DNA from: Amaurobius ferox
Lineage: Eukaryota > Arthropoda > Arachnida > Araneae > Amaurobiidae
DNA length: 64,000 nucleotides
NCBI GenBank assembly: GCA_951213105.1
Contig: OX578138.1
Span: 97,431,114-97,495,113 of the forward strand
Direction of reading: 5' to 3'
A program made the translations under genes and the position numbers. The notes beneath the pieces were generated by a model, which worked only from the letters and a program-made list of their open reading frames with translations, had not been told where the DNA came from and searched no databases. Shown piece after piece: positions 9,455 through 58,070 of this stretch (position 1 is the stretch's first letter; every line of letters begins with the position of its first letter).

Positions 9455-11228
9455 CCGGGTGGTCAGAATTAAAACACCCCTACTCTGAGCTCTCTATACA
9501 TCGAACTACTCAGTGTAAAGGCTCCAAAATTGTTGAACCTACTACTCAAGACATGGGGAAAGGGATTACGCGAAAAAAAAAATTAGTTCCAGAAACACCG
9601 ATAGGTGGCGCTGTACAACAGAAAATATGCTGAAAAGACACAAAATTCACATTTGTAACACATTTTATTCGAACGTACCAAACATTCATATCACAAGAAC
9701 CTTATCGATGCAGGGAATGCTGCTCAATATGGTTCCCTTCTTCAAGATGTCAAATCTGCAGTTTGTGGACAGCTTGTTCAACTGCAGATCGTAATTGGTC
9801 GAATGAGATGCTTCTCACATGCCGAGTGATACTGTCTTTCAAATCTGGCAAGGTTACAAGACGTCCTCGATAAACAAGACTTTTTAAGTATCCCCACAGT
9901 CAAAAATCACAGGGATTAAGATCTGGAGAACGAGATGGCCAGGTTGCCGGAAACGCACGACTAATTACTCTACCATTAGTAAAATGTTGCCGAAGAAACT
10001 GCTGTACACAGAGTCCAATGTGTGGAGGCGCTCCATTTTGCATAAAGGTAATTGAATCAAGACATTGGTGCTGTTGCAGTTGGGGTACAACAAAATTTTC
10101 CAGCATGTGTTTGTGCCTCCTGGTCGTCACGGTGCATGTCACAGGGCCATTGGGAGTAGCTCCTTCGAAAAAGAAAGGTCCAAGAATGAATGTGGCTGTG
10201 AATCCACACCAGACTGTAACTTTCGGTGAGTGAAGTGGAATCTCTTGGAAGGTACGAGGGTTTTCCGTGTCCCAAATGCAACAGTTATGGGTGTTGACTG
10301 TTCCACTTAGATGGAAATGCGCTTCATCGCTCCATAGAATCTGCCATGGCCACGATGCATCCACTTCAATTCTAGCCAGAAATGTACATACAAAAGTCAG
10401 TTGCATCTCCCTGTCGATGGTCAGCAAGTGGTGATTGTGGCTAATTTTGTACGGGAAAAAAATGCACTATGTTTCTCAGTACGTTCCGCACTGTGCTGTA
10501 GGGAACACCCAAGTGTCGTGACACTCCACGTGCACTACTACAGCTTACAACGTTATCCATTGATTGTTCAACAATAGCGGTGGCAACATCGTCAACGACA
10601 TCTGGACGAGTCGATTTGCGTCCTCGACCCGGCTGAACTCCAAGATGTCCAGTTTTCTCGAATCGAGCGATCATTCTCCTGAGAGCTTGTGGAAGTAATG
10701 GTCCTTTGCGCAAATTCTTAAGTCGACGAAACTCTTGAAGTGCAGCTGCAGCATGTCCTTTGTTTTCATAAAACAGCTTCACAAGCAAAGCGCGTTCTGG
10801 CAGTGTGACAGCCATCGCTGATAAGAATGAAAATTTCCCAGTTGTATCCCCTTTTATGCCCAGAACATAGTAGCTGCAAACCAAGGGTTTATGCAAATTT
10901 TTGTGCTTACAGTGGGGAATTGCAGTTACAATGACAGTTTAAGTTTCTTCACTTTTTTATCTTCTTTTTTTATCATATCAGCAAAAGAAATTAAAAAGGA
11001 AAAATTCCATATCGCATGTTTTTTTTTTTTTTTGTGATTATTTTGTGTCTTTTCAGCATATTTTCTGTTGTACAGCGCCACCTGTCGGTGTTTTTGGAAC
11101 TTTTTTTTTTCAAGTAATCCCTTTCTCCATGTCTTGAATAGTAGGTTCAACAATTTTGGAGCCTTTACACTGAGTAGTTCGATGTATAGAGAGCTCAGAG
11201 TAGGGGTGTTTTAATTCTGACCACCCGG
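9455..11228 (-). mobile_element. Tc1/mariner-type transposon with ~190-bp inverted repeats
   Basis: Starts CCGGGTGGTCAGAATTAAAA and ends with its complement (…CCACCCGG), flanked by TATA on both sides, consistent with TA duplication. The inverted arms run roughly 9455-9644 and 11041-11228 and include CTACTCTGAGCTCTCTATAC. The single gene inside (9750-10815, minus) is broken. Length, 1,774 bp, is normal for a complete element of this superfamily, so both ends and the whole body are present although the enzyme is dead. Confidence 0.93.
9750..10815 (-). pseudogene. Mariner-like DDE transposase, inactivated (DUF4817-type N-terminus)
   Basis: The start ATG is at 10815-10813. The N-terminal half carries a DUF4817-like helix-turn-helix region (LPERALLVKLFYENKGHAAA, then RRMIARFEKTGHLGVQPGRG) and a second helix-turn-helix around SRHLGVPYSTVRNVLR. 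The catalytic half has the first acidic motif WSDEAHFHLSG and the third, RSPDLNPCDF. Three lesions are visible. A frame change lies near 10441-10460 in a run of A/T. The second catalytic motif reads MQNGAPPH where the family has aspartate before GAPPH. A TGA stop follows CDF (9897-9899), where tryptophan of the LWGYLK motif is expected. A further stop ends the frame at 9750. It encodes the cut-and-paste transposase of the surrounding element. Confidence 0.88.
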
Positions 11229-45784: not shown

Positions 45785-46144
45785 ACAAGAAAGATCAGTC
45801 ATGCATAAAGCATTGATTTTGAAACACTTTCCAAATGAAATGCAATTTTATTTAAACATCTCCAAAATGTGATACATTCTGCGCTGACAGTTTTTAAATT
45901 GTCACAGTAATACTACTTGAAACCTTAAAACTTCATCGAAAAAGACAATGCTAGTTACATAAAATGAATTTTATTCAAATGACGTCATCGAAATATAAAT
46001 CGTCTACCTCTCTAAAATCAATGAATGTTTTATTCATATAACTTATATTCCAAACCCAGAGCTAAATAATGTGGCGATAAAAAAAATTCAGCAATTCTTA
46101 TATAACTCACCTTGAAATCGCTTAATTTGTTTGCATTCTACATG
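45785..46144 (+). repeat. Family A repeat, copy 4 (5' part, left of the Gypsy insertion)
   Basis: Starts ACAAGAAAGATCAGTCATGC; interrupted after TTGCATTCTACATG by the LTR retrotransposon. The final CATG (46141-46144) is the target duplication. Confidence 0.85.
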
Positions 46145-48155
46145 TGTTATGGTGATTTCTGAGAAAGTTAAATTGATATGCTCTTAAAGCAGTAATAAAT
46201 AATTTTAATCTAATATAAAATAAATAACTTAAATATTTATAACTCTAAATATAGTCTAATCTTAATTCTAACTGTTAAATGAGAATCTTAAAGGATAACT
46301 GAACTAAAATAACTCACCTTTTAATAAATATTAAATTTGTAAACTAATAACCCTAATTGATTCTTATATTTGTTTAACTTTAGTGAACTTAAATTTGAGC
46401 AATCCTTAACTTCTATAAATTTATTTAACTTACTTAATATTGTTTTGCTCTGGTAATTGCTCAGTTCAAGTAATGATTATTTAATCTTGAAGAGGTGTAA
46501 ATAAACGTAACTTTAATACAAATAAGTGTTTACCTGCCTAACAGGACTTTGTGATCTTTTTAAATACACCTTTTCCCAGTAAATATTATATCGGCTGGAA
46601 ATTTCCCACCCCAATTTCCGGAACAGAGCTGCTTTATAAGCAATCAAAACACGATGTAGCATACAAGTTTTTGTAAACATTATGTCTTTTTCACCCAGGG
46701 AAATTAACAATGTTTTAATAATGATATGTAAATGTTTATACTTTTAATAATGTGCATGTTTCGTAAGTTCAACTGCATTTTTACACAAAATACAAAAGCT
46801 TTCAAGATGGCGATCAAAACAACGCTATCTGAGCGTCGCCGGCAACTTGAAACAGGCATATCAAATGTCTCAAAGGAGAAAACAGATGTGGAACGCCGGG
46901 TTGACAGATTTGGCATCTTCAGCTCGCCAAGAAGTCCGGTGCCGGGTTATCAGTTGTAACCGCGGCGACCGAAATTCAAATTCTTTCTCGCCAAAAGGGG
47001 TTGCCGTTCCGGGACCTCACGCCAAGAGAGAAACTTCTCGTCAGTCGTGAAGTAAATACCAACATGTAAGGTTGCTGCCCGCGGTCATTTTAACTTCCTT
47101 CGCTTTTTACAACTCCTCTCGGAGTCACCACAAGGTGCTGCTAACATGTACACAGTAAATTCCACCATTTTGTAAGAACAGGATGTTCTTATCCATAGCC
47201 AGAAAACACTTTTCCTAAATTTTCGAAGAGGACATCGCCTTGACACCCTCAACATGCCTATCCACCAAGGGCCCGAGATAACGACGGGACCCTCTAACAT
47301 CTGACGTTCCCCAGCGTGCTCCAGCACCCACTGTACCAGTTCAACATCTACGAATCCGAGGCCTCTGCACTTAACTAGGTCGGTTCATCAGATGCCTATG
47401 CCCGCAACAGACGCCCGAACACCGCTCCAGCACCCTCAGTCCCAGTTCAACATCCACGAATCCGAGGCCCCTGCACTTATCTAGGCCGGTTCATCAGACG
47501 CCTAAGCCCGCAGCTGACTCCTGTCTCGGCGCCGTCCGATCACCAGCGCTAGTGGCCTCACGGGGAGAGGTAGAAGAAGTGAGTGTGTGTGTGTGCGCGT
47601 ATGCAGCAAGAAAAATAGTGGCCTCCAAACTGAGGCGAAGAGCTGTGAGTTTTGGCATGTTAACAAAATGCCTAAAAAAATCAAATCAACATCAATTTCT
47701 ACAAGTATTTTTGAGCTCTCAAAGAGCTAACACAGTAAATGGCGATGCCATCGTTAGATATTTTTACATGAATGTTTTCTTTTTACTTTGTACTTGAACA
47801 GAGCTGTCAAAATTTTCCCTTTTTTTATTTCTTTGAAACCCTGGGTGAAATGATTTAATTAAGTTTTAATAGAAATTCTAATAAATTTTTCTTTTAAATT
47901 TAATTCTGGGTTTTCATTCAATTCTTAACACTGTGTCTCTGTGTAATAGTCATTTGTTTAACATATTTTGTTTTGAGAGTAAAAACACAACGCAATTTCC
48001 GAATTTTTAGAGAGTAAGATGTTGGCCATTGAATAAACTAAAAGTAAGTTTAAAATTCTTTTATTTAATTCCTTTTTATTTTTAATATTTTAGTTTAGTT
48101 TTTTTTGTTTACTTTTTTATTTAAATTTTATGCTGATGTCGAAAAAGGCACAGCA
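46145..48155 (+). repeat. 5' LTR of the Gypsy element
   Basis: 2,011 bp, TG..CA ends. Contains AAGATGGCG (46804-46812, YY1-like), a 106-bp tandem duplication (47318-47423 and 47424-47529, each starting GCTCCAGCACCC), and a GC-rich middle unlike the AT-rich ends. Short frames inside are present identically in the 3' LTR and are not treated as genes. Confidence 0.96.
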
Positions 48156-48359
48156 TATTAACTGGTGCATGTGACCAGTCTTTTGAGAGCTCTGTTTGAG
48201 TATAATATGTTTGAAATTACCTTTTGAATGTTTACTGTGCATTTTGGGGGAGATATTTCCAGTCTGTTTTATATTTTAGTTAACCTTAACCCTTACCTGA
48301 CCACAGGAATATCATTTATTTTTTTTTATTAAACTTTACTTTTCTTGATTTCTTGAAAA
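48156..48359 (+). promoter_or_regulatory. Gypsy leader with tentative primer binding site
   Basis: TGGTGCATGTGACCAG begins at 48163, 8 bases inside the LTR edge. It starts with TGG, as expected for pairing with a tRNA 3' CCA, but I cannot name the tRNA. The remainder to the Gag ATG at 48360 is AT-rich untranslated leader. Confidence 0.4.
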
Positions 48360-49640
48360 ATGTTTAACAACTTAGTTGAGGATAATAATACTTTTTCAGT
48401 GGAGGATCCACATAATAGAAGTCAGGTTTCTAGTCCTAACCCTTTTCATAACAGGGGAGATAATTTAGAGATGGAGGAAAATCGATTTAATGCAAGAGTT
48501 ACCACTGAGAATCAAGGTCCTCCCATGTTATCTAGAGCTGATGATCCACACTTTAGTGGTCAATCTTCTTCTTTGATTGGAGCAAGCCAGATTGTGCAAC
48601 ATATTACACATACTGCTCCACTGGGGGGTTTCCTAGATAGCATTCCTGTCTTTTGTGGAACTGAAAGTGATTCTTCACTTGAAGATTTCATATCCACAAT
48701 AGACATGATTGCAAGCTATGCAAATTGGGGAGAGAGCGACAAACTTTTAGCGATAAAGCTAAAGTTAGGAGGAGAGGCGGCACGTCTCATTAAAGATAAT
48801 CCGAATTTAAGAGTGGAGAAAATTTTAACTGTGCTAATTAAAGCCCTCCGTGATAGATTTTCATCACCGGAATATGCACACAAGCATTTAAGGTCCCTCC
48901 TTCAAAGTTATCAGCGCCCACACGAGACGGTGAGGCAATTCGCTGCAAGGGTGGAGTAATTGTCCTTTAAAACTGTTCCTGCTGACTTACTCCAAAATTC
49001 TGTGGCTGATAAAAATCGCCAGGATGTTCTGACATCAGTTTTTATTGAGGGTCTTACCCCGCATATTAGAAGACTAGTCCTACCCCAGAACCACAAAACC
49101 TTCAAAAATGCCAGAAATCAGGCAGTGGCTGAGGAGGAAGTCTGGAGTCATCAGAACTCACAACAGTCAGTAGAGGTCAAAAGTATTACACATTCTGAAT
49201 CAGATGAGTTTAAAAACATTATTTTGAAACAACAGACCATGATAGCTGCGCTCACTGATTCTGTAGCTGCCTTACAGTTACAAGTAAAGGAAGTAATTTC
49301 TGCTCCTAAGGGGAATAACACAAAGGGTTACCCACAAAAGAGACAAGGGTCTCAAGATGCAAGAAACTTCTCTCCTACTTGTTTTAATTGCAATAGAAAA
49401 GGGCACATAGCACGAGAATGTCGTAATCAATCGCGCAGCCAATTCCAACAACAGGAGTTCAGAAGGCAGTACATACCACCACAAAATAATCAGGGGTATG
49501 CGTTCCAAGGATTTGATCAGCAACAAAGTAGTTTTCAAGGTCATCAGCCAGTGCTTCCACCTAGACCTCAAAGGAATACAAACCCTTTTAACCAAGTCCA
49601 ACAGCAGTCATGGCAGGCACCTTCAAGTAATTTAAACTAG
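48360..49640 (+). pseudogene. gag: Gypsy Gag (nucleocapsid-capsid), one internal stop codon
   Basis: Gag forms the cytoplasmic virus-like particle that packages element RNA. The frame starts at ATG 48360 and is 426 codons to TAG 49638-49640, interrupted only by TAA at 48957-48959 (codon 200). Reading continues in the same frame on both sides, so a single-base change is the simplest cause. The capsid-like region spans roughly codons 95-260 (around GEAARLIKDNPNLRVEKILT and GLTPHIRRLV). A zinc knuckle of pattern C-x2-C-x4-H-x4-C (CFNCNRKGHIAREC) is at 49380-49421, followed by a Gln-rich tail. The last two codons form the frameshift site into Pol. The stop blocks particle protein and Gag-Pol from this copy unless supplied from elsewhere or suppressed. 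The context TAA-TTG gives no specific hint of read-through. Confidence 0.93.
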
Positions 49641-49679
49641 GTGAGGGTGACGGAAGTACTCACCCTAGCTTACCGTCGC
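49631..49679 (+). promoter_or_regulatory. -1 ribosomal frameshift signal between Gag and Pol
   Basis: Heptamer TTTAAAC (49631-49637) is in the correct phase, U-UUA-AAC in the Gag frame, and the Gag stop TAG follows at once. The Pol frame, one base back, opens exactly here: its preceding stop is TAA at 49628-49630. Downstream, AGGGTGA (49644-49650) can pair with TCACCCT (49660-49666), 6 nt after the heptamer. Alternatively GGTGAG (49640-49645) pairs with CTCACC (49659-49664) while GTGACGG (49647-49653) pairs with CCGTCGC (49673-49679, one G-U), giving an H-type pseudoknot. UUUAAAC is a well-known slippery sequence. Function here is inferred. Confidence 0.85.
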
Positions 49680-49708
49680 AGACCCATTTTGAGGTGTCAT
49701 TTCTTGGG

Positions 49709-52700
49709 ATGGCAGTTTCATCTGTTAGAGCCCAACTTCCTTTGATATCAGGCACTATTCAGAATCAAAACCTTTTATTTTTAGTAGATTCAGGTGCATC
49801 AATTAATGTTATATACACCAGTACACTTAAACTTTTGTCTATTGAGCAGTCACACATTGAACCATGCAATATTTTTCTTAAAGGAATCTCTAGACAACAA
49901 TTAAATGTAAAAGAGAAAGTTACTTTACCCATTCTTTTTGGAAGAGAGAGTATAGAGGTAGATTTTTTTATTTTAAATGATTCATTTACCCCTCCACATT
50001 ATTCAGCTATTTTAGGTACTAAATTTTTATCAAGACATAAATTTAAAATTGATTTTGAAAATGAAATTTTGGAAAATGATGTTGTTATTGTGCCTTTTGA
50101 AATGTCAAATCAGCATGCCCAGCCTTTGCCTGTTAATAATAATATAAATTCTTCTCAAAATTCTTCCCACCAAACACAGGAATCTTTTAATTGTTTCACC
50201 CTTAATAAATTCAACTTAGAACCCTTTTCTGAATGTTTTATTAAAGTTCGCTGCAAGTCTAGCCAAAATTTTTATTCTGATATCATTTTAATAGAACCTA
50301 ATTCTCATAACAGTAACATTGTTGCTGCTAGATCCGTCCATAATTTTTCTTCAGATGATATTTACACTATAAAAATTGCAAATTTTTCTCGTTCAAGCAT
50401 ACATGTCAATAAAAATACTAAGGTTGCCACTCTATCATCTGTTTTTTCTGTCCCATCCTACCCTGTTAATGCTATTCAAAATTCTGAGGCAGAGGAAGGA
50501 GATGACTTTGAGGTTTGGGGAGGGAAATTTGATTTTTCACACTTGCAAGATTCGCACAAGTTGCCCTTGCTAGACTTACTCAAGGAATTTAAGCATGTTT
50601 TTGCTAATTCCGTTTCTGACCTCGAGGGATGTGATACAATTTATCACAACATTAATTTAAATAATTCTGTCCCTGTAAGACTAAGACCCTACCGTGTCCC
50701 TTTCCATCTTAAAGACGAGTTAGATAAGCAAATTAATGAGCTTTTAGAAGCTGATGTTATTCAAGAATCTGGTAGTCCTTTTGCTTGCCCTGTTTTGTTT
50801 GTTAAAAAGGCTGATGGCACTTTTAGGCTCGTATGCGATTTCCGGAAATTAAATGATATTACAATTGCAGAAAACTTCCCCATTCCCAATATTCAGGAGA
50901 TGATCGATGATTTAAATGGGGCCAAATATTTCTCAACCCTAGACCTAACTTCAGGTTTCTACCAGATGAAGCTCCATCCAGATGACACATATAAGACTGG
51001 GTTCTCCACGCCGTCTGGACACTATGAGTGGAAAAGGGTACCTTTTGGACTCAAAAATGCCCCCTCATCTTTTCAACGTTTAATGTCAATCGTTTTAGCT
51101 GACCTTTCTCCCATGCAAATAGGTATATACATCGATGATATCGTGATTGCTTCTACGACTTTTGAAGAGCATCTAAATAAGTTGAGAATTGTTTTCGATC
51201 GTCTGCAGACTCATAACCTTAAACTTAAACCGAGCAAGTGCATTTTTTTTAAACCTTCCATTACTTATTTAGGATTTCAAGTTTCACAAGGTATTGTCCA
51301 ACCAGATCCCACTAATTTACGAGTAGTTCAAAATTTTAAAATCCCATCTTGCAGAAAACATATTAGACAATTTTTAGGCCTTACAGGATTTTATCGTAGG
51401 TTTATTCAAAATTATGCTGAAAAATCACTTCCACTAACTGAATTAACAAAAAATTCTTCTAATTTTGTTTGGACAGAAAAGGCGCAAACTGCCTTTGATA
51501 CACTAAAGCAAGAACTGCTTCAAAAACCCATTTTGCAACTTCCTGATTTTTTAAAACCTTTCGCTTTATGCACCGATGCCTCAAAATTTTCTTTGGGAGC
51601 TGTTCTATGTCAAGAAGATGAAAACAAATTCCTACATCCTGTGGCTTATGCCAGTAGAAAGTTGAAAGCAGCTGAATTAAATTATAGCACTGTAGAAAGA
51701 GAAGCTTTAGGTGTTGTTTGGGCCACTGCCTATTTTAAACATTATCTTTTGGGGAAGCATTTTGTTGTGTATTGCGACCAAGCTTCCCTGTCTCATGTAA
51801 TAAATCTCAAAGATCCCACTTCACGCATTGCTAGATGGATAATGAGTCTTACAAGTTATGATTTTAAGATTATTCATAAGCCAGGAAAATTAAATGTTAC
51901 CGCTGATTTCCTTTCAAGGTGCATAAATACTATAGATACTGTAAATGTTAATGAACCCAAAAATTTAACTATTGATTCTAGCCTTTTTACTCGAATTTCT
52001 AATTCTCAAATATCAGATGCTAAATGTAATAAAATTAAATTTCTGTTAAGTAATAATAAGGAAACTTACCCTAAAACTCTTAAATTTTTTTTGAAAGATG
52101 ATGTTCTGTATACAGTTCACAAGAGACCCAAGAACAGATATCAAACTATGGAAAGAATTTGTGTTCCCTTAGACTTAGTCCCTGATATTCTAAATTTGTG
52201 TCATGATTCTCCCACTGCAGCTCATGGTGGTTTCAAAAGAACTCTGATTAGAATTCAAAAACATTTTTATTGGCCAAGAATGTATGCCCATGTTATGAAT
52301 TATGTTAAGTCCTGCCACACTTGTCTACAAAGACGTGGTTATAAGGCTCACCAGAAGGCACCTATTCAACGATTTCCAGTCACAACTTATCCTATGGAGA
52401 GAATTGCAACAGATATAGTTGGCCCTTTGCCAGAGACTATAGCTGGAAATAAATATATTTTGGTCGTTACTGACTACTTTACAAGGTGGCCTGAAGCTTA
52501 TCCTATTAAAAACACTAAATCCGAAACTATTTTGGCTTGCTTAGAAAATTGGGTTTCTGCTCATGGTGTTCCTAGACACTTGGTCACTGATAAAGGTTCG
52601 AATTTTATATCGAAGGTAGCTAGGAATTTTTACAAAAAATTAGGGATCAACAAACATACTACGACAAGTCACAATCCTCAAGCAGATGGGGTCTGTGAAC

Positions 52701-53365
52701 GTTTAAATTCGACCTTAATTAAGTCTCTCAGTACCTTAATTTCCAGCACACAAGATGACTGGGATAGGCACTTGCACTTTGCCCTTATGGCACATAGAGT
52801 AGCAAAACATAGTGCGACAGGAGAATCACCTGCATTTCTGTTGTTTGGAAGAGACATCACTTTACCTGAGGATATATTATCTAATATTAAGACACCAGCC
52901 TTTGTTTCTGTACAAGATTACTCTGATGATTTGGTCATTCGCATGAAAAACTCCTTCAAAATTACAAATCAGAATTTAGTTAGAGCAGCTGAACAACAGG
53001 AGAGTTATCAGCATAAGCATGCGGTGCATAAAAACATCAAAGTGGGTGATCAAGTTTTCTTGTACACTCCAGTTGTTCGCAAAGGACAAGCTCGAAAGTT
53101 GACAAATTTCAATAAGGGACCGTATACAGTGATATCACAGAAAACAAATGTCAATTTCGTGATCACAAACACTCAGGCTCCTTTTGATACACAAACGATT
53201 CATGTAAATAGGCTCACTCGCATCACAGATAGACAGCAGGCTCTTATGCCAACAGGTTCTACAAGCCAGGAACTCAACGACTCCAATGTCACTGATTCAG
53301 CTAGAAATTTACCTAGCGTTTCTAACAGTCCTGAGCATAGATATGCACTGAGACCTAGAATCTAA
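49709..53365 (+). CDS. pol: Gypsy Pol polyprotein: protease, reverse transcriptase, RNase H, integrase
   Basis: Uninterrupted frame to TAA at 53363-53365; it is open from 49631, and the first ATG is at 49709, but translation is expected through the -1 shift rather than from that ATG. Numbering from 49694, domains are: aspartic protease, VDSGAS at 31-36; reverse transcriptase with LDLTSGF (416-422) and catalytic YIDD (479-482); RNase H with CTDAS (626-630), Glu670, Asp695 and ADFLSR (737-742); integrase zinc finger H837-x6-H844..C874-x2-C877; DD35E core D907, D966, E1002; GPY module at 1142-1144. No chromodomain. Every catalytic residue and the canonical 35-residue D-E spacing are kept, so this protein looks functional. 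It copies element RNA into DNA and integrates it in the nucleus. Confidence 0.97.
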   Translation: MAVSSVRAQLPLISGTIQNQNLLFLVDSGASINVIYTSTLKLLSIEQSHIEPCNIFLKGISRQQLNVKEKVTLPILFGRESIEVDFFILNDSFTPPHYSAILGTKFLSRHKFKIDFENEILENDVVIVPFEMSNQHAQPLPVNNNINSSQNSSHQTQESFNCFTLNKFNLEPFSECFIKVRCKSSQNFYSDIILIEPNSHNSNIVAARSVHNFSSDDIYTIKIANFSRSSIHVNKNTKVATLSSVFSVPSYPVNAIQNSEAEEGDDFEVWGGKFDFSHLQDSHKLPLLDLLKEFKHVFANSVSDLEGCDTIYHNINLNNSVPVRLRPYRVPFHLKDELDKQINELLEADVIQESGSPFACPVLFVKKADGTFRLVCDFRKLNDITIAENFPIPNIQEMIDDLNGAKYFSTLDLTSGFYQMKLHPDDTYKTGFSTPSGHYEWKRVPFGLKNAPSSFQRLMSIVLADLSPMQIGIYIDDIVIASTTFEEHLNKLRIVFDRLQTHNLKLKPSKCIFFKPSITYLGFQVSQGIVQPDPTNLRVVQNFKIPSCRKHIRQFLGLTGFYRRFIQNYAEKSLPLTELTKNSSNFVWTEKAQTAFDTLKQELLQKPILQLPDFLKPFALCTDASKFSLGAVLCQEDENKFLHPVAYASRKLKAAELNYSTVEREALGVVWATAYFKHYLLGKHFVVYCDQASLSHVINLKDPTSRIARWIMSLTSYDFKIIHKPGKLNVTADFLSRCINTIDTVNVNEPKNLTIDSSLFTRISNSQISDAKCNKIKFLLSNNKETYPKTLKFFLKDDVLYTVHKRPKNRYQTMERICVPLDLVPDILNLCHDSPTAAHGGFKRTLIRIQKHFYWPRMYAHVMNYVKSCHTCLQRRGYKAHQKAPIQRFPVTTYPMERIATDIVGPLPETIAGNKYILVVTDYFTRWPEAYPIKNTKSETILACLENWVSAHGVPRHLVTDKGSNFISKVARNFYKKLGINKHTTTSHNPQADGVCERLNSTLIKSLSTLISSTQDDWDRHLHFALMAHRVAKHSATGESPAFLLFGRDITLPEDILSNIKTPAFVSVQDYSDDLVIRMKNSFKITNQNLVRAAEQQESYQHKHAVHKNIKVGDQVFLYTPVVRKGQARKLTNFNKGPYTVISQKTNVNFVITNTQAPFDTQTIHVNRLTRITDRQQALMPTGSTSQELNDSNVTDSARNLPSVSNSPEHRYALRPRI

Positions 53366-54588
53366 TTGGGTTGAACATTTTCCCCATCCTTTGATTTTGT
53401 CATTTTATTCACCTCATGTTTTTCAGTTTTCATTTTATTATATGTTTTCAGTTTTATTCATTTTTAGTACAATTTTTGAAGCATTAGTACATCCACGGAT
53501 AAAATTAAGTGGTTGATACTTTTAGAATGTTTCATTTGCATTTTCCGTGTTTTTCTATCGAATCATGTACATATTATGAGTCTTTAGGGATTGGTTTCAG
53601 AGGGTAGCACACTTCCAATTTTGAGACAGTTATGTGTTTAAGTAAAAAGTATTATGTTCTTCTTGACAGAGATATCAAGTCGAAGTGCATTTATGAGTAG
53701 TGCTGAATGGTGTTTATAGAATTTTATGTGTGGAAGTTTGTGTTAAATTTTCTTGAAGGTTTAAGTAGAAACCAATCTTTAGAAAATTTCAGTGTTAGTA
53801 ATGTTTTCATGAGTTTTTATTTAGGTTTATATTATCATCATTTTCTTTAAGCTTAGGTTGTGGAAAACCTTTTTTTTAAGTAGTTTGGTATTTTGTTTTT
53901 GTGTAGTCTACAAGGATAGACTAGTTTAGTAGAATTCATTGAACTTCTGGGAGATTGGCGAATGTCTTTAACAGGCAAAAATTAATGTTTAGTCATTTTA
54001 ATGGAATATTTAGGACTGTATACTGCTGTGGGCCTACAATAGTTTTCAAATGATCTTGCTGGTTCAAGTCATTCCTTCAAATTAAAGTTAATTTTCCCTC
54101 CTTTGCCTGCAGAGTATATGGTTCTATCATATCTGTTTGAAACATTTTATTTCGGTTGATTGAAGAGAGCTAGGCGCCTGGTTCTTCTGTTGAAGGTATT
54201 CATCCAATTACCTTTGGTTCTTTAACATTTTTGAAAATTTTCTTCCACCTTTTTATGGGATAATGCTCGAATATGTCAAATATAAGAAGACATATCATTG
54301 TTTTTGTTTTTAATTTTCCCACAGTCATTCCATTGTTTTGTTCCTATTCAATCAATCCATTTTACAAGTACTTTCACATTTTGTTATTTGAAACCACAGT
54401 GTTTCACCCTTTTCAGTTTGTACAATTTTATTTTATTTTTAGATTTCATACATGTTTTACATCTCGACTGCCTCATCGTCTCCTGTGCTTAGAGTTTAGA
54501 AATTTTTTTTAACACCTTTGATCCTGTTTGGGTAGTAAAATTTTTTTTTCTACGAAACAAAAATTTTAAGGTGGTCAGGGAGGTAATA
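53366..54588 (+). other. Gypsy 3' untranslated region and purine-rich tract
   Basis: About 1.2 kb, T-rich on the sense strand, between the Pol stop and the 3' LTR. No envelope-like frame: the longest, 54273-54512, is 79 codons without signal peptide-transmembrane layout or known motif. The final GGTGGTCAGGGAGGTAATA (54570-54588) is purine-rich and is the likely plus-strand primer tract. Confidence 0.8.
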
Positions 54589-56599
54589 TGTTATGGTGAT
54601 TTCTGAGAAAGTTAAATTGATATGCTCTTAAAGCAGTAATAAATAATTTTAATCTAATATAAAATAAATAACTTAAATATTTATAACTCTAAATATAGTC
54701 TAATCTTAATTCTAACTGTTAAATGAGAATCTTAAAGGATAACTGAACTAAAATAACTCACCTTTTAATAAATATTAAATTTGTAAACTAATAACCCTAA
54801 TTGATTCTTATATTTGTTTAACTTTAGTGAACTTAAATTTGAGCAATCCTTAACTTCTATAAATTTATTTAACTTACTTAATATTGTTTTGCTCTGGTAA
54901 TTGCTCAGTTCAAGTAATGATTATTTAATCTTGAAGAGGTGTAAATAAACGTAACTTTAATACAAATAAGTGTTTACCTGCCTAACAGGACTTTGTGATC
55001 TTTTTAAATACACCTTTTCCCAGTAAATATTATATCGGCTGGAAATTTCCCACCCCAATTTCCGGAACAGAGCTGCTTTATAAGCAATCAAAACACGATG
55101 TAGCATACAAGTTTTTGTAAACATTATGTCTTTTTCACCCAGGGAAATTAACAATGTTTTAATAATGATATGTAAATGTTTATACTTTTAATAATGTGCA
55201 TGTTTCGTAAGTTCAACTGCATTTTTACACAAAATACAAAAGCTTTCAAGATGGCGATCAAAACAACGCTATCTGAGCGTCGCCGGCAACTTGAAACAGG
55301 CATATCAAATGTCTCAAAGGAGAAAACAGATGTGGAACGCCGGGTTGACAGATTTGGCATCTTCAGCTCGCCAAGAAGTCCGGTGCCGGGTTATCAGTTG
55401 TAACCGCGGCGACCGAAATTCAAATTCTTTCTCGCCAAAAGGGGTTGCCGTTCCGGGACCTCACGCCAAGAGAGAAACTTCTCGTCAGTCGTGAAGTAAA
55501 TACCAACATGTAAGGTTGCTGCCCGCGGTCATTTTAACTTCCTTCGCTTTTTACAACTCCTCTCGGAGTCACCACAAGGTGCTGCTAACATGTACACAGT
55601 AAATTCCACCATTTTGTAAGAACAGGATGTTCTTATCCATAGCCAGAAAACACTTTTCCTAAATTTTCGAAGAGGACATCGCCTTGACACCCTCAACATG
55701 CCTATCCACCAAGGGCCCGAGATAACGACGGGACCCTCTAACATCTGACGTTCCCCAGCGTGCTCCAGCACCCACTGTACCAGTTCAACATCTACGAATC
55801 CGAGGCCTCTGCACTTAACTAGGTCGGTTCATCAGATGCCTATGCCCGCAACAGACGCCCGAACACCGCTCCAGCACCCTCAGTCCCAGTTCAACATCCA
55901 CGAATCCGAGGCCCCTGCACTTATCTAGGCCGGTTCATCAGACGCCTAAGCCCGCAGCTGACTCCTGTCTCGGCGCCGTCCGATCACCAGCGCTAGTGGC
56001 CTCACGGGGAGAGGTAGAAGAAGTGAGTGTGTGTGTGTGCGCGTATGCAGCAAGAAAAATAGTGGCCTCCAAACTGAGGCGAAGAGCTGTGAGTTTTGGC
56101 ATGTTAACAAAATGCCTAAAAAAATCAAATCAACATCAATTTCTACAAGTATTTTTGAGCTCTCAAAGAGCTAACACAGTAAATGGCGATGCCATCGTTA
56201 GATATTTTTACATGAATGTTTTCTTTTTACTTTGTACTTGAACAGAGCTGTCAAAATTTTCCCTTTTTTTATTTCTTTGAAACCCTGGGTGAAATGATTT
56301 AATTAAGTTTTAATAGAAATTCTAATAAATTTTTCTTTTAAATTTAATTCTGGGTTTTCATTCAATTCTTAACACTGTGTCTCTGTGTAATAATCATTTG
56401 TTTAACATATTTTGTTTTGAGAGTAAAAACACAACGCAATTTCCGAATTTTTAGAGAGTAAGATGTTGGCCATTGAATAAACTAAAAGTAAGTTTAAAAT
56501 TCTTTTATTTAATTCCTTTTTATTTTTAATATTTTAGTTTAGTTTTTTTTGTTTACTTTTTTATTTAAATTTTATGCTGATGTCGAAAAAGGCACAGCA
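54589..56599 (+). repeat. 3' LTR of the Gypsy element
   Basis: Same length as the 5' LTR and identical in every stretch compared except A at 56393 (G in the 5' LTR). The 106-bp tandem units lie at 55762-55867 and 55868-55973. Confidence 0.96.
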
Positions 56600-56603
56600 C
56601 ATG

Positions 56604-56809: not shown

Positions 56810-58070
56810 ACAAGAAAGTTCAATCATGCATAAAACATAGATTATTAAACACATTCCAACTTCAATGCAATTTCATTTAAACATATCTAAAATGCGATAC
56901 ATTCCTCGGTAATATTTTTTAAATTATCACAATACTAGTACATTAATTTATTATATTTGAAAAATTCATCGAAAAAAGTGAACTTCGTTCAAATGACGTC
57001 AATTAAATATAAATCGCCTGGCTCTTCGGTAATGTTTTTAATATTATCATAATACTACAATAATTTATTATATTTGAAAACTTCATCAAAAACAACTGAA
57101 ATTTATTCCAATGACGCCATCGAAATATAAAATGCCTGGCTCTCTCTATAAAAGCAGCATTTCATTTATAAATATTTTCCCATTCATTTCATTCATCACA
57201 ATACTATAATAATTTATTTTATTTAAAAGACCATGGAGGTACAAGTAATTAAACTCTATGCGTAAAACTTCATCGAAAAAAATCGTCCTACTCTTTGTAA
57301 AATCAAAGAATATTTCATTCATATCAGCTATGCAGACTCCATGAACTAAATGATTCTGTGTTAAAGAAATACAGCAATTCTAATACAACTCATTATACAT
57401 ATTTTGCTGTTTACATTTTACATAGGTGAAAAATAGGCTTCGTTGTAGAAATAATCAAATTTGGATGAGCATTTAAACTCAAATATGTTGTCATTGAGTT
57501 GTTTCAGTATGTAGATGCACAGAATTTAGGCAAAAATAAAGTGGTTTTAGGACGGATACAACACTCAATATGAATTAAAAAGAACTTTAAAAATCACGAT
57601 TTTTAGACAAGATGGATGCCATATATCATTTTGAAGTGGGTCACGTGATCTTTTCATATCATGGTCACGTGATCGCTTCATATAAGAGGTGTTATTATTA
57701 TTTTAATTTTTATTCAAAAAACTACTGAATATATTTCGCTGAATTTTTTTTAATATATTTTATGGAACAATTTGAATATTACCTAAAATTTTTGAAGCAA
57801 TTTGTGGATTTTAAATCCGCTTAAAAAATGATTGAAAAATTAGGTCCCATAGGGCTCAATGTATTTCATTTTTTCAACCCGGGTTCAATTGAAAACTAAT
57901 TGGGTGATATTATTCATTTATATTCCCATAGGTTCTACAGACCGTCTGAACAACATACTAAAATTTCATTTTGATTAAGTCATTTTTACGGCAGTTATCG
58001 AGCTAACGGACAGACAGACAGACAGAATGAACAAATTCATAAACACTTTTCAACTTTGTTGTAAAGTGTT
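56810..58070 (+). repeat. Family A repeat, copy 5
   Basis: Complete by its termini. An internal ~90-bp segment with AATATAAA.CGCCTGGCTCT is duplicated (56995-57035 and 57115-57150), and TCACGTGATC is doubled at 57641 and 57664, as in copy 2. Ends with (GACA)n and the CACTTTTCAACTTTGTTGTA dyad. Confidence 0.8.

What the first reader, a model, noticed from the sequence alone, without database searches (positions are those of the whole stretch)
49631..49679. Gag-Pol junction built on a textbook -1 frameshift heptamer with a possible pseudoknot
The Pol frame opens exactly at TTTAAAC, which sits in the correct U-UUA-AAC phase and is followed at once by the Gag TAG. Gag and Pol overlap by only 10 nt, so the slippery site is the whole overlap. 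Downstream bases can form a 7-bp hairpin 6 nt away, or alternatively a pseudoknot with two stems of 6 and 7 bp. UUUAAAC is best known from nidovirus and some retroviral frameshifting. Its use so compactly in an arthropod Gypsy element is worth documenting.
Basis: partly seen in the sequence, partly recalled or inferred. Interest (0 to 1): 0.75.

Follow-up and report, generated by a model that had tools for sequence, protein, structure and literature searches.

The report
Retrotransposon ribosomal frameshift signal, conserved
A young retrotransposon in a large animal genome appears to make its enzymes by letting ribosomes slip back one base at a classic slippery sequence, next to an RNA hairpin that related elements also keep; this is a known type of signal, well documented here by comparison.

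Summary
The sequence observation is right. TTTAAAC at 49631-49637 lies in Gag phase (T TTA AAC TAG), Pol is in the -1 frame, overlap 10 nt. The element is a young 10,455-bp Ty3/gypsy-type element with 2,011-bp LTRs differing at one site. Relatives in the same genome test the claim: of 67 junctions at distinct places, 66 have the Gag stop directly behind the heptamer and 50 keep TTTAAAC, including 8 of 8 from family D, about 41% alike in the protease region. Family C (12) has GGGAAAC (2) or GGAAAAC (10). RNAalifold on four family representatives predicts a 13-bp bulged hairpin 7 nt behind the heptamer; 52 of 52 cells pair, three pairs doubly substituted. All nine A/B differences fall in its unpaired positions (P = 0.0001). 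Best explanation: ordinary -1 programmed frameshifting with a hairpin stimulator. The window copy has a private nonsense codon in Gag (48957). No frameshift product was measured.

The parts
46145..48155 (+). 5' LTR, TG...CA, 2011 bp, preceded by target duplication CATG (46141-46144)
54589..56599 (+). 3' LTR, one mismatch to the 5' LTR, followed by CATG (56600-56603)
48360..48959 (+). First part of the Gag frame, ATG 48360 to an in-frame TAA at 48957-48959, not seen in the 22 other loci covering this codon
48960..49640 (+). Rest of the Gag frame with one CCHC zinc knuckle, ending at TAG 49638-49640
49631..53365 (+). Pol, -1 frame, 1244 aa: protease motif (by eye), RT, RNase H, integrase (Pfam)
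49631..49637 (+). Slippery heptamer T TTA AAC
49638..49644 (+). 7-nt spacer: Gag stop plus 4 nt
49645..49685 (+). Conserved bulged hairpin: 49645-49648/49682-49685, 49649-49653/49673-49677, 49654-49657/49668-49671; bulges 49672 and 49678-49681; loop 49658-49667
   Evidence: RNAalifold on families A-D; pair counts; codon randomisation

Best explanation
This is the Gag/Gag-Pol switch of a Ty3/gypsy-type LTR retrotransposon. Ribosomes translating Gag pause with UUA and AAC in the P and A sites because a bulged hairpin 7 nt downstream (9 nt if only its inner part forms, as may be so in family A) resists unwinding. Both tRNAs re-pair one base back on UUU and AAA. A minority of ribosomes thus make Gag-Pol, while the rest stop at the UAG directly behind the heptamer. 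Shown here: frame, phase, stop, and conservation of heptamer and pairing between families. Inferred: that slippage occurs, its rate, and that the hairpin stimulates it.
For: Phase and frames. 67 junctions at distinct places: Gag stop directly behind the heptamer in 66. TTTAAAC in 42 of 47 A/B copies (40 of 45, plus L091 and L093) and 8 of 8 D; C has GGGAAAC in 2 of 12 and GGAAAAC in 10 of 12. RNAalifold hairpin of 13 pairs, three with both sides changed. 52 of 52 cells pair against 33-54% when slid, shuffles reaching this in 5 of 500. 94.9% of 351 cells in 27 distinct rows. Synonymous-codon randomisation, all 13 pairs: P = 0.00014 (A), 0.00014 (B), 0.00084 (C), 0.0039 (D). A/B differences avoid paired sites, 0 of 9, P = 0.0001. 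With the first 7 nt unavailable, inner-pair probabilities are 0.93-0.99 in A, 0.82 or more in B, 0.96 or more in C, 0.64-0.84 in D.
Against: No product was measured. The hairpin was defined on the same four families that score it, and B is close to A. Shuffles reach its number of doubly changed pairs in 48 of 500. The rival pseudoknot has a similar covariation score: 0.333 against 0.346 on four rows and 0.168 against 0.151 on 27 rows. In A the outer four pairs are weak (0.19-0.28, or 0.00 with the spacer free), and in D every pair is at 0.27-0.35 with the spacer free. Minimum energy beats synonymous codons only in C and D; A has z -0.64, B -1.09. Old copies do not keep the pairing: 9 of 24 paired-site changes, as expected of dead copies but no support. 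GGAAAAC of most C copies is not a classical heptamer. This copy's Gag is truncated upstream.
Confidence: 0.78

Rival explanations
1. -1 frameshifting stimulated by the reader's H-type pseudoknot (49640-49645/49659-49664 with 49647-49653/49673-49679), or by its stem 1 combined with the inner part of the conserved hairpin.
For: All pairs exist in family A. Stem 1 alone pairs 18 of 24 cells, three pairs doubly changed; 9 of 500 shuffles reach its paired cells and score. On 27 rows it pairs 79.0%, slid versions 34-55%. Whole structure: 3 of 500 shuffles for paired cells and for score.
Against: 41 of 52 cells pair; stem 1 has two mismatches in B, three in C and one in D. It would begin 2 nt after the heptamer, against a typical spacer of 6-9 nt (PMC3835772 passages). 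Five of the seven stem 2 pairs are shared with the conserved hairpin.
Confidence: 0.14
2. Pol is made by reinitiation at the next Pol-frame AUG (49709) or from a spliced RNA, and the heptamer is incidental.
For: That AUG has a G at -3 and +4 (sequence; context rule recalled), and families A, B and C have it.
Against: Family D has another sequence there. It would not explain a heptamer and pairing held between families. Splicing was not examined.
Confidence: 0.04
3. The heptamer and pairing are kept only because Gag and Pol proteins are constrained there.
For: The Pol-frame peptide G-D/E-G-S is kept in A-D.
Against: Codon randomisation keeping the protein rarely gives the pairing. Pair 11-35 changes C-G, U-A, A-U at two third codon positions. 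A/B amino-acid changes lie in spacer and loop.
Confidence: 0.04

Closest known systems
-1 frameshift Gag-Pol junctions of animal LTR retrotransposons (2003 survey, as told in PMC5009743 section 11)
   Same: pol in the -1 frame; a classical heptamer
   Different: I could not read the survey itself (not held). Here a candidate stimulator is supported by covariation between families.
Coronavirus, arterivirus and torovirus UUUAAAC sites (PMC3835772, Table 1 passages)
   Same: Same heptamer; spacers of 3-7 nt in the rows seen
   Different: Listed there with pseudoknots; here a hairpin is the best-conserved structure. No homology claimed.
Betaretroviral GGGAAAC sites (PMC3835772, Table 1 passages)
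   Same: GGGAAAC, as in two family C copies; 7-nt spacer
   Different: Listed there with pseudoknots.

Membership tests
Canonical -1 programmed frameshift site | X XXY YYZ heptamer in zero-frame phase | tested here: met
   T TTA AAC in phase
Canonical -1 programmed frameshift site | Downstream structure after a spacer of typically 6-9 nt (PMC3835772) | tested here: met
   Predicted hairpin at 7 nt, pairs kept in A-D; activity not tested
Canonical -1 programmed frameshift site | Conservation of site and frame in relatives | tested here: met
   50 of 67 TTTAAAC; C has GGGAAAC or GGAAAAC; one fused frame
Canonical -1 programmed frameshift site | Trans-frame product above background | not testable with these tools
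   needs an assay
H-type pseudoknot stimulator | Two crossing stems conserved | tested here: inconclusive
   41 of 52 cells paired; stem 1 18 of 24, mismatches in B, C and D, yet above shuffles
Ty3/gypsy (Metaviridae; defining features recalled) | Pol order PR-RT-RNaseH-INT | tested here: met
   RT, RNase H, integrase by Pfam in order; protease only from the DSGA motif, read by eye
Ty3/gypsy (Metaviridae; defining features recalled) | LTRs TG...CA with a short target duplication | tested here: met
Ty3/gypsy (Metaviridae; defining features recalled) | tRNA primer-binding site | tested here: inconclusive
   A TGG-containing stretch follows the 5' LTR; no tRNA search was made
Errantivirus (gypsy sensu stricto; feature recalled) | env gene | tested here: not met
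   No open frame of 100 aa or more between 53365 and 54589 in this copy

The most novel reading that the evidence does not exclude
A lineage of Ty3/gypsy elements keeps one hairpin stimulator while the slippery heptamer before it is replaced: UUUAAAC in families A, B and D, GGGAAAC or mostly the non-classical GGAAAAC in family C. The stimulator would then be the more constant, modular part of the signal, and G_GAA_AAC a natural weak or unusual shift site. The order of the changes was not worked out.
Probability: 0.45. Interest if true: 0.5.

Novelty: new member of a known kind. Interest (0 to 1): 0.36.

Why it matters
It gives a naturally replicated test of a frameshift signal: four related families in one genome, with the heptamer held or exchanged and a hairpin held through compensatory changes. 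That lets stimulator and slippery site be studied apart. The phenomenon itself is expected for animal LTR elements.

Tried and rejected
Pseudoknot and 7-bp hairpin were counted (one search had stem 2 entered one column off and is replaced). The 7-bp hairpin has no doubly changed pair. Rfam: two matches far below cut-off, neither a frameshift element. Viral contigs gave no relative. The prokaryote genome collection gave two, 33% and 40% identical (L096, L097), too distant for the junction and not followed. A protein search with the Pol N-terminus found nothing; with RT-RNase H it found 4268, the best 120 listed. P0010, 66% identical there, has Gag and Pol in one frame, so the wider clade varies. 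I had no DNA for the relatives, so all junctions compared are from one genome. A search of the genome with a more distant relative (P0011) listed places that I read as family D by their coordinates and frame lengths; no further family was found. How many D copies keep the heptamer genome-wide was not obtained; 310 exact copies of the D stop plus 23 nt were counted. Rows dropped: L028, L029 and L057 from the per-site counts; L028 and L029, which took L001-L040 only; L028, L029 and L057 (indels), L086 and L089 (not anchored) and L091 and L093-L095 (fetched later) from the 27-row alignment. L087 and L092 show no junction. Duplicates among L041-L070 were matched by hand from printed coordinates.

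Full report
What is there. The junction is as described: T TTA AAC TAG in Gag phase at 49631-49640, with Pol open in the -1 frame from 49631 to 53365. The element around it runs from 46145 to 56599, with 2,011-bp LTRs differing at one site (47949) and CATG on both sides, so it is a recent and structurally complete insertion. Pol has RT, RNase H and integrase by Pfam and a DSGA protease motif by eye; Gag has one zinc knuckle. No open frame of 100 aa lies between Pol and the 3' LTR. The Gag frame of this copy carries TAA at 48957. Of 24 loci checked, 22 have a sense codon there, one is the window itself and one is not covered. Ribosomes starting at the Gag ATG of this copy would therefore mostly stop before its junction (inference).

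Relatives. The window lies in a 3.56-Gb assembly. Searches with the junction DNA and with the protease region of Pol gave copies in four groups: A (the window's), B (about 82% identical DNA), C (about 54-58% identical protein) and D (about 41%). After matching coordinates by hand, 69 distinct places were fetched and 67 show the junction: 47 of type A/B, 12 of C, 8 of D. In 66 of 67 a stop follows the heptamer directly in Gag phase, and in 55 of these 66 the -1 frame is open for 60 codons or more; ten of the other eleven are cut by a stop and L095 is limited by the stretch fetched. TTTAAAC is intact in 42 of 47 A/B copies; the five others are L028, L029, L030, L033 and L057. It is intact in 8 of 8 D copies, which have TAA instead of TAG. 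C has GGGAAAC in 2 and GGAAAAC in 10, followed by TAG. In the 18 loci where both ORFs were mapped, Pol is in the -1 frame. L057 has one extra A and an open frame of 1704 aa.

Structure. Folding the A junction alone gave either a hairpin at 49647-49657 with 49668-49679 (53 nt) or competing folds (90 and 150 nt); z-scores were -1.93, -1.42 and -0.70. One representative of each family, chosen by me (L001, L036, L073, L079), align without gaps behind the stop. RNAalifold then predicts a 13-bp hairpin with bulges of 1 and 4 nt, starting 7 nt behind the heptamer. Counting from the first base after the stop, pair 8-42 is U-A, U-A, C-G, U-G in A, B, C, D; pair 11-35 is C-G, C-G, U-A, A-U; pair 14-31 is A-U, A-U, G-C, G-U. 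All 52 cells pair; sliding the partner by 1-3 columns gives 33-54%. Shuffles reach the paired cells and the covariation score in 5 of 500 each, the number of doubly changed pairs in 48 of 500. With 27 distinct rows 94.9% of 351 cells pair; shuffles reach this in 0 of 500, the doubly changed pairs in 36 of 500.

The pseudoknot pairs 78.8% and 81.2% of cells in the two sets, with covariation scores close to the hairpin's: 0.333 against 0.346, and 0.168 against 0.151. Five of its stem 2 pairs belong to the hairpin. Stem 1 alone pairs 18 of 24 cells with three doubly changed pairs; 9 of 500 shuffles reach its paired cells. On 27 rows it pairs 79.0%, with 0 of 500 shuffles. So stem 1 is not kept intact in any of B, C and D, but is better than chance, and a pseudoknot is not excluded. 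The 7-bp hairpin pairs 82.1% and 86.8% with no compensatory change, no better than shuffles.

Could coding explain it? Positions 11 and 35 are third codon positions of Pol. Random synonymous codons give all 13 pairs with P between 0.00014 and 0.0039 per family using the window element's codon usage, and between 0.00024 and 0.0013 with uniform usage. The nine differences between A and B in the 45 bases behind the stop all fall in unpaired positions (P = 0.0001); for the other five family comparisons P is 0.0034-0.091. These tests use a structure defined on the same families, so they support rather than prove; the inner nine pairs, which the 53-nt fold of A alone contains, hold 9 of 9 in C and D with P = 0.0063 and 0.0143.

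Limits. In A the outer four pairs are weak (probability 0.19-0.28 with the first 7 nt removed, 0.00 with them), while the inner nine are 0.93-0.99 and 0.57-0.61; in D every pair is 0.27-0.35 with the spacer free and 0.64-0.84 without it. The effective spacer in A may be 9 nt. Among L001-L040, old copies do not preserve pairing (9 of 24 paired-site changes). Energies beat synonymous codons only in C and D. All junctions come from one genome, and the host was not identified.

Literature. [quoted passage not shown] PMC3835772 (passages only) gives UUUAAAC for arteri-, corona- and toroviruses; the retroviral rows I saw, a cut list, have other heptamers. I noticed no paper describing UUUAAAC in a Ty3/gypsy element in the listings (listings only; one search returned nothing), but the 2003 survey is not held, so this is no claim of novelty.

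Verdict. A conserved and, as far as sequence can tell, ordinary -1 frameshift signal. The curious point is family C, where the hairpin stays and the heptamer changes.

Noticed in passing
48957-48959: Nonsense codon in Gag, not seen in the 22 other loci covering it, in an otherwise very young copy
   Followed up: yes
47318-47512: The 2-kb LTR holds a 106-bp tandem repeat (1.8 copies), partly inside a 140-aa open frame without a Pfam match
   Followed up: partly
L057: An extra A in the heptamer puts Gag and Pol in one open frame of 1704 aa
   Followed up: partly
L071-L076, L085, L086, L089, L090, L094, L095: Family C has GGAAAAC in 10 of 12 copies and GGGAAAC in 2; both kinds occur with 1272-aa Pol frames
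   Followed up: partly
9900-10938: Two minus-strand frames with sub-threshold transposase-like Pfam matches (DDE_3, HTH), possibly a decayed DNA transposon
   Followed up: no
56913-57092: Two 63-bp direct repeats, 79% alike, just outside the element
   Followed up: no
L096, L097: Two contigs filed under bacterial MAGs encode Ty3/gypsy-like Pol (33% and 40% identical), perhaps eukaryotic contamination
   Followed up: no
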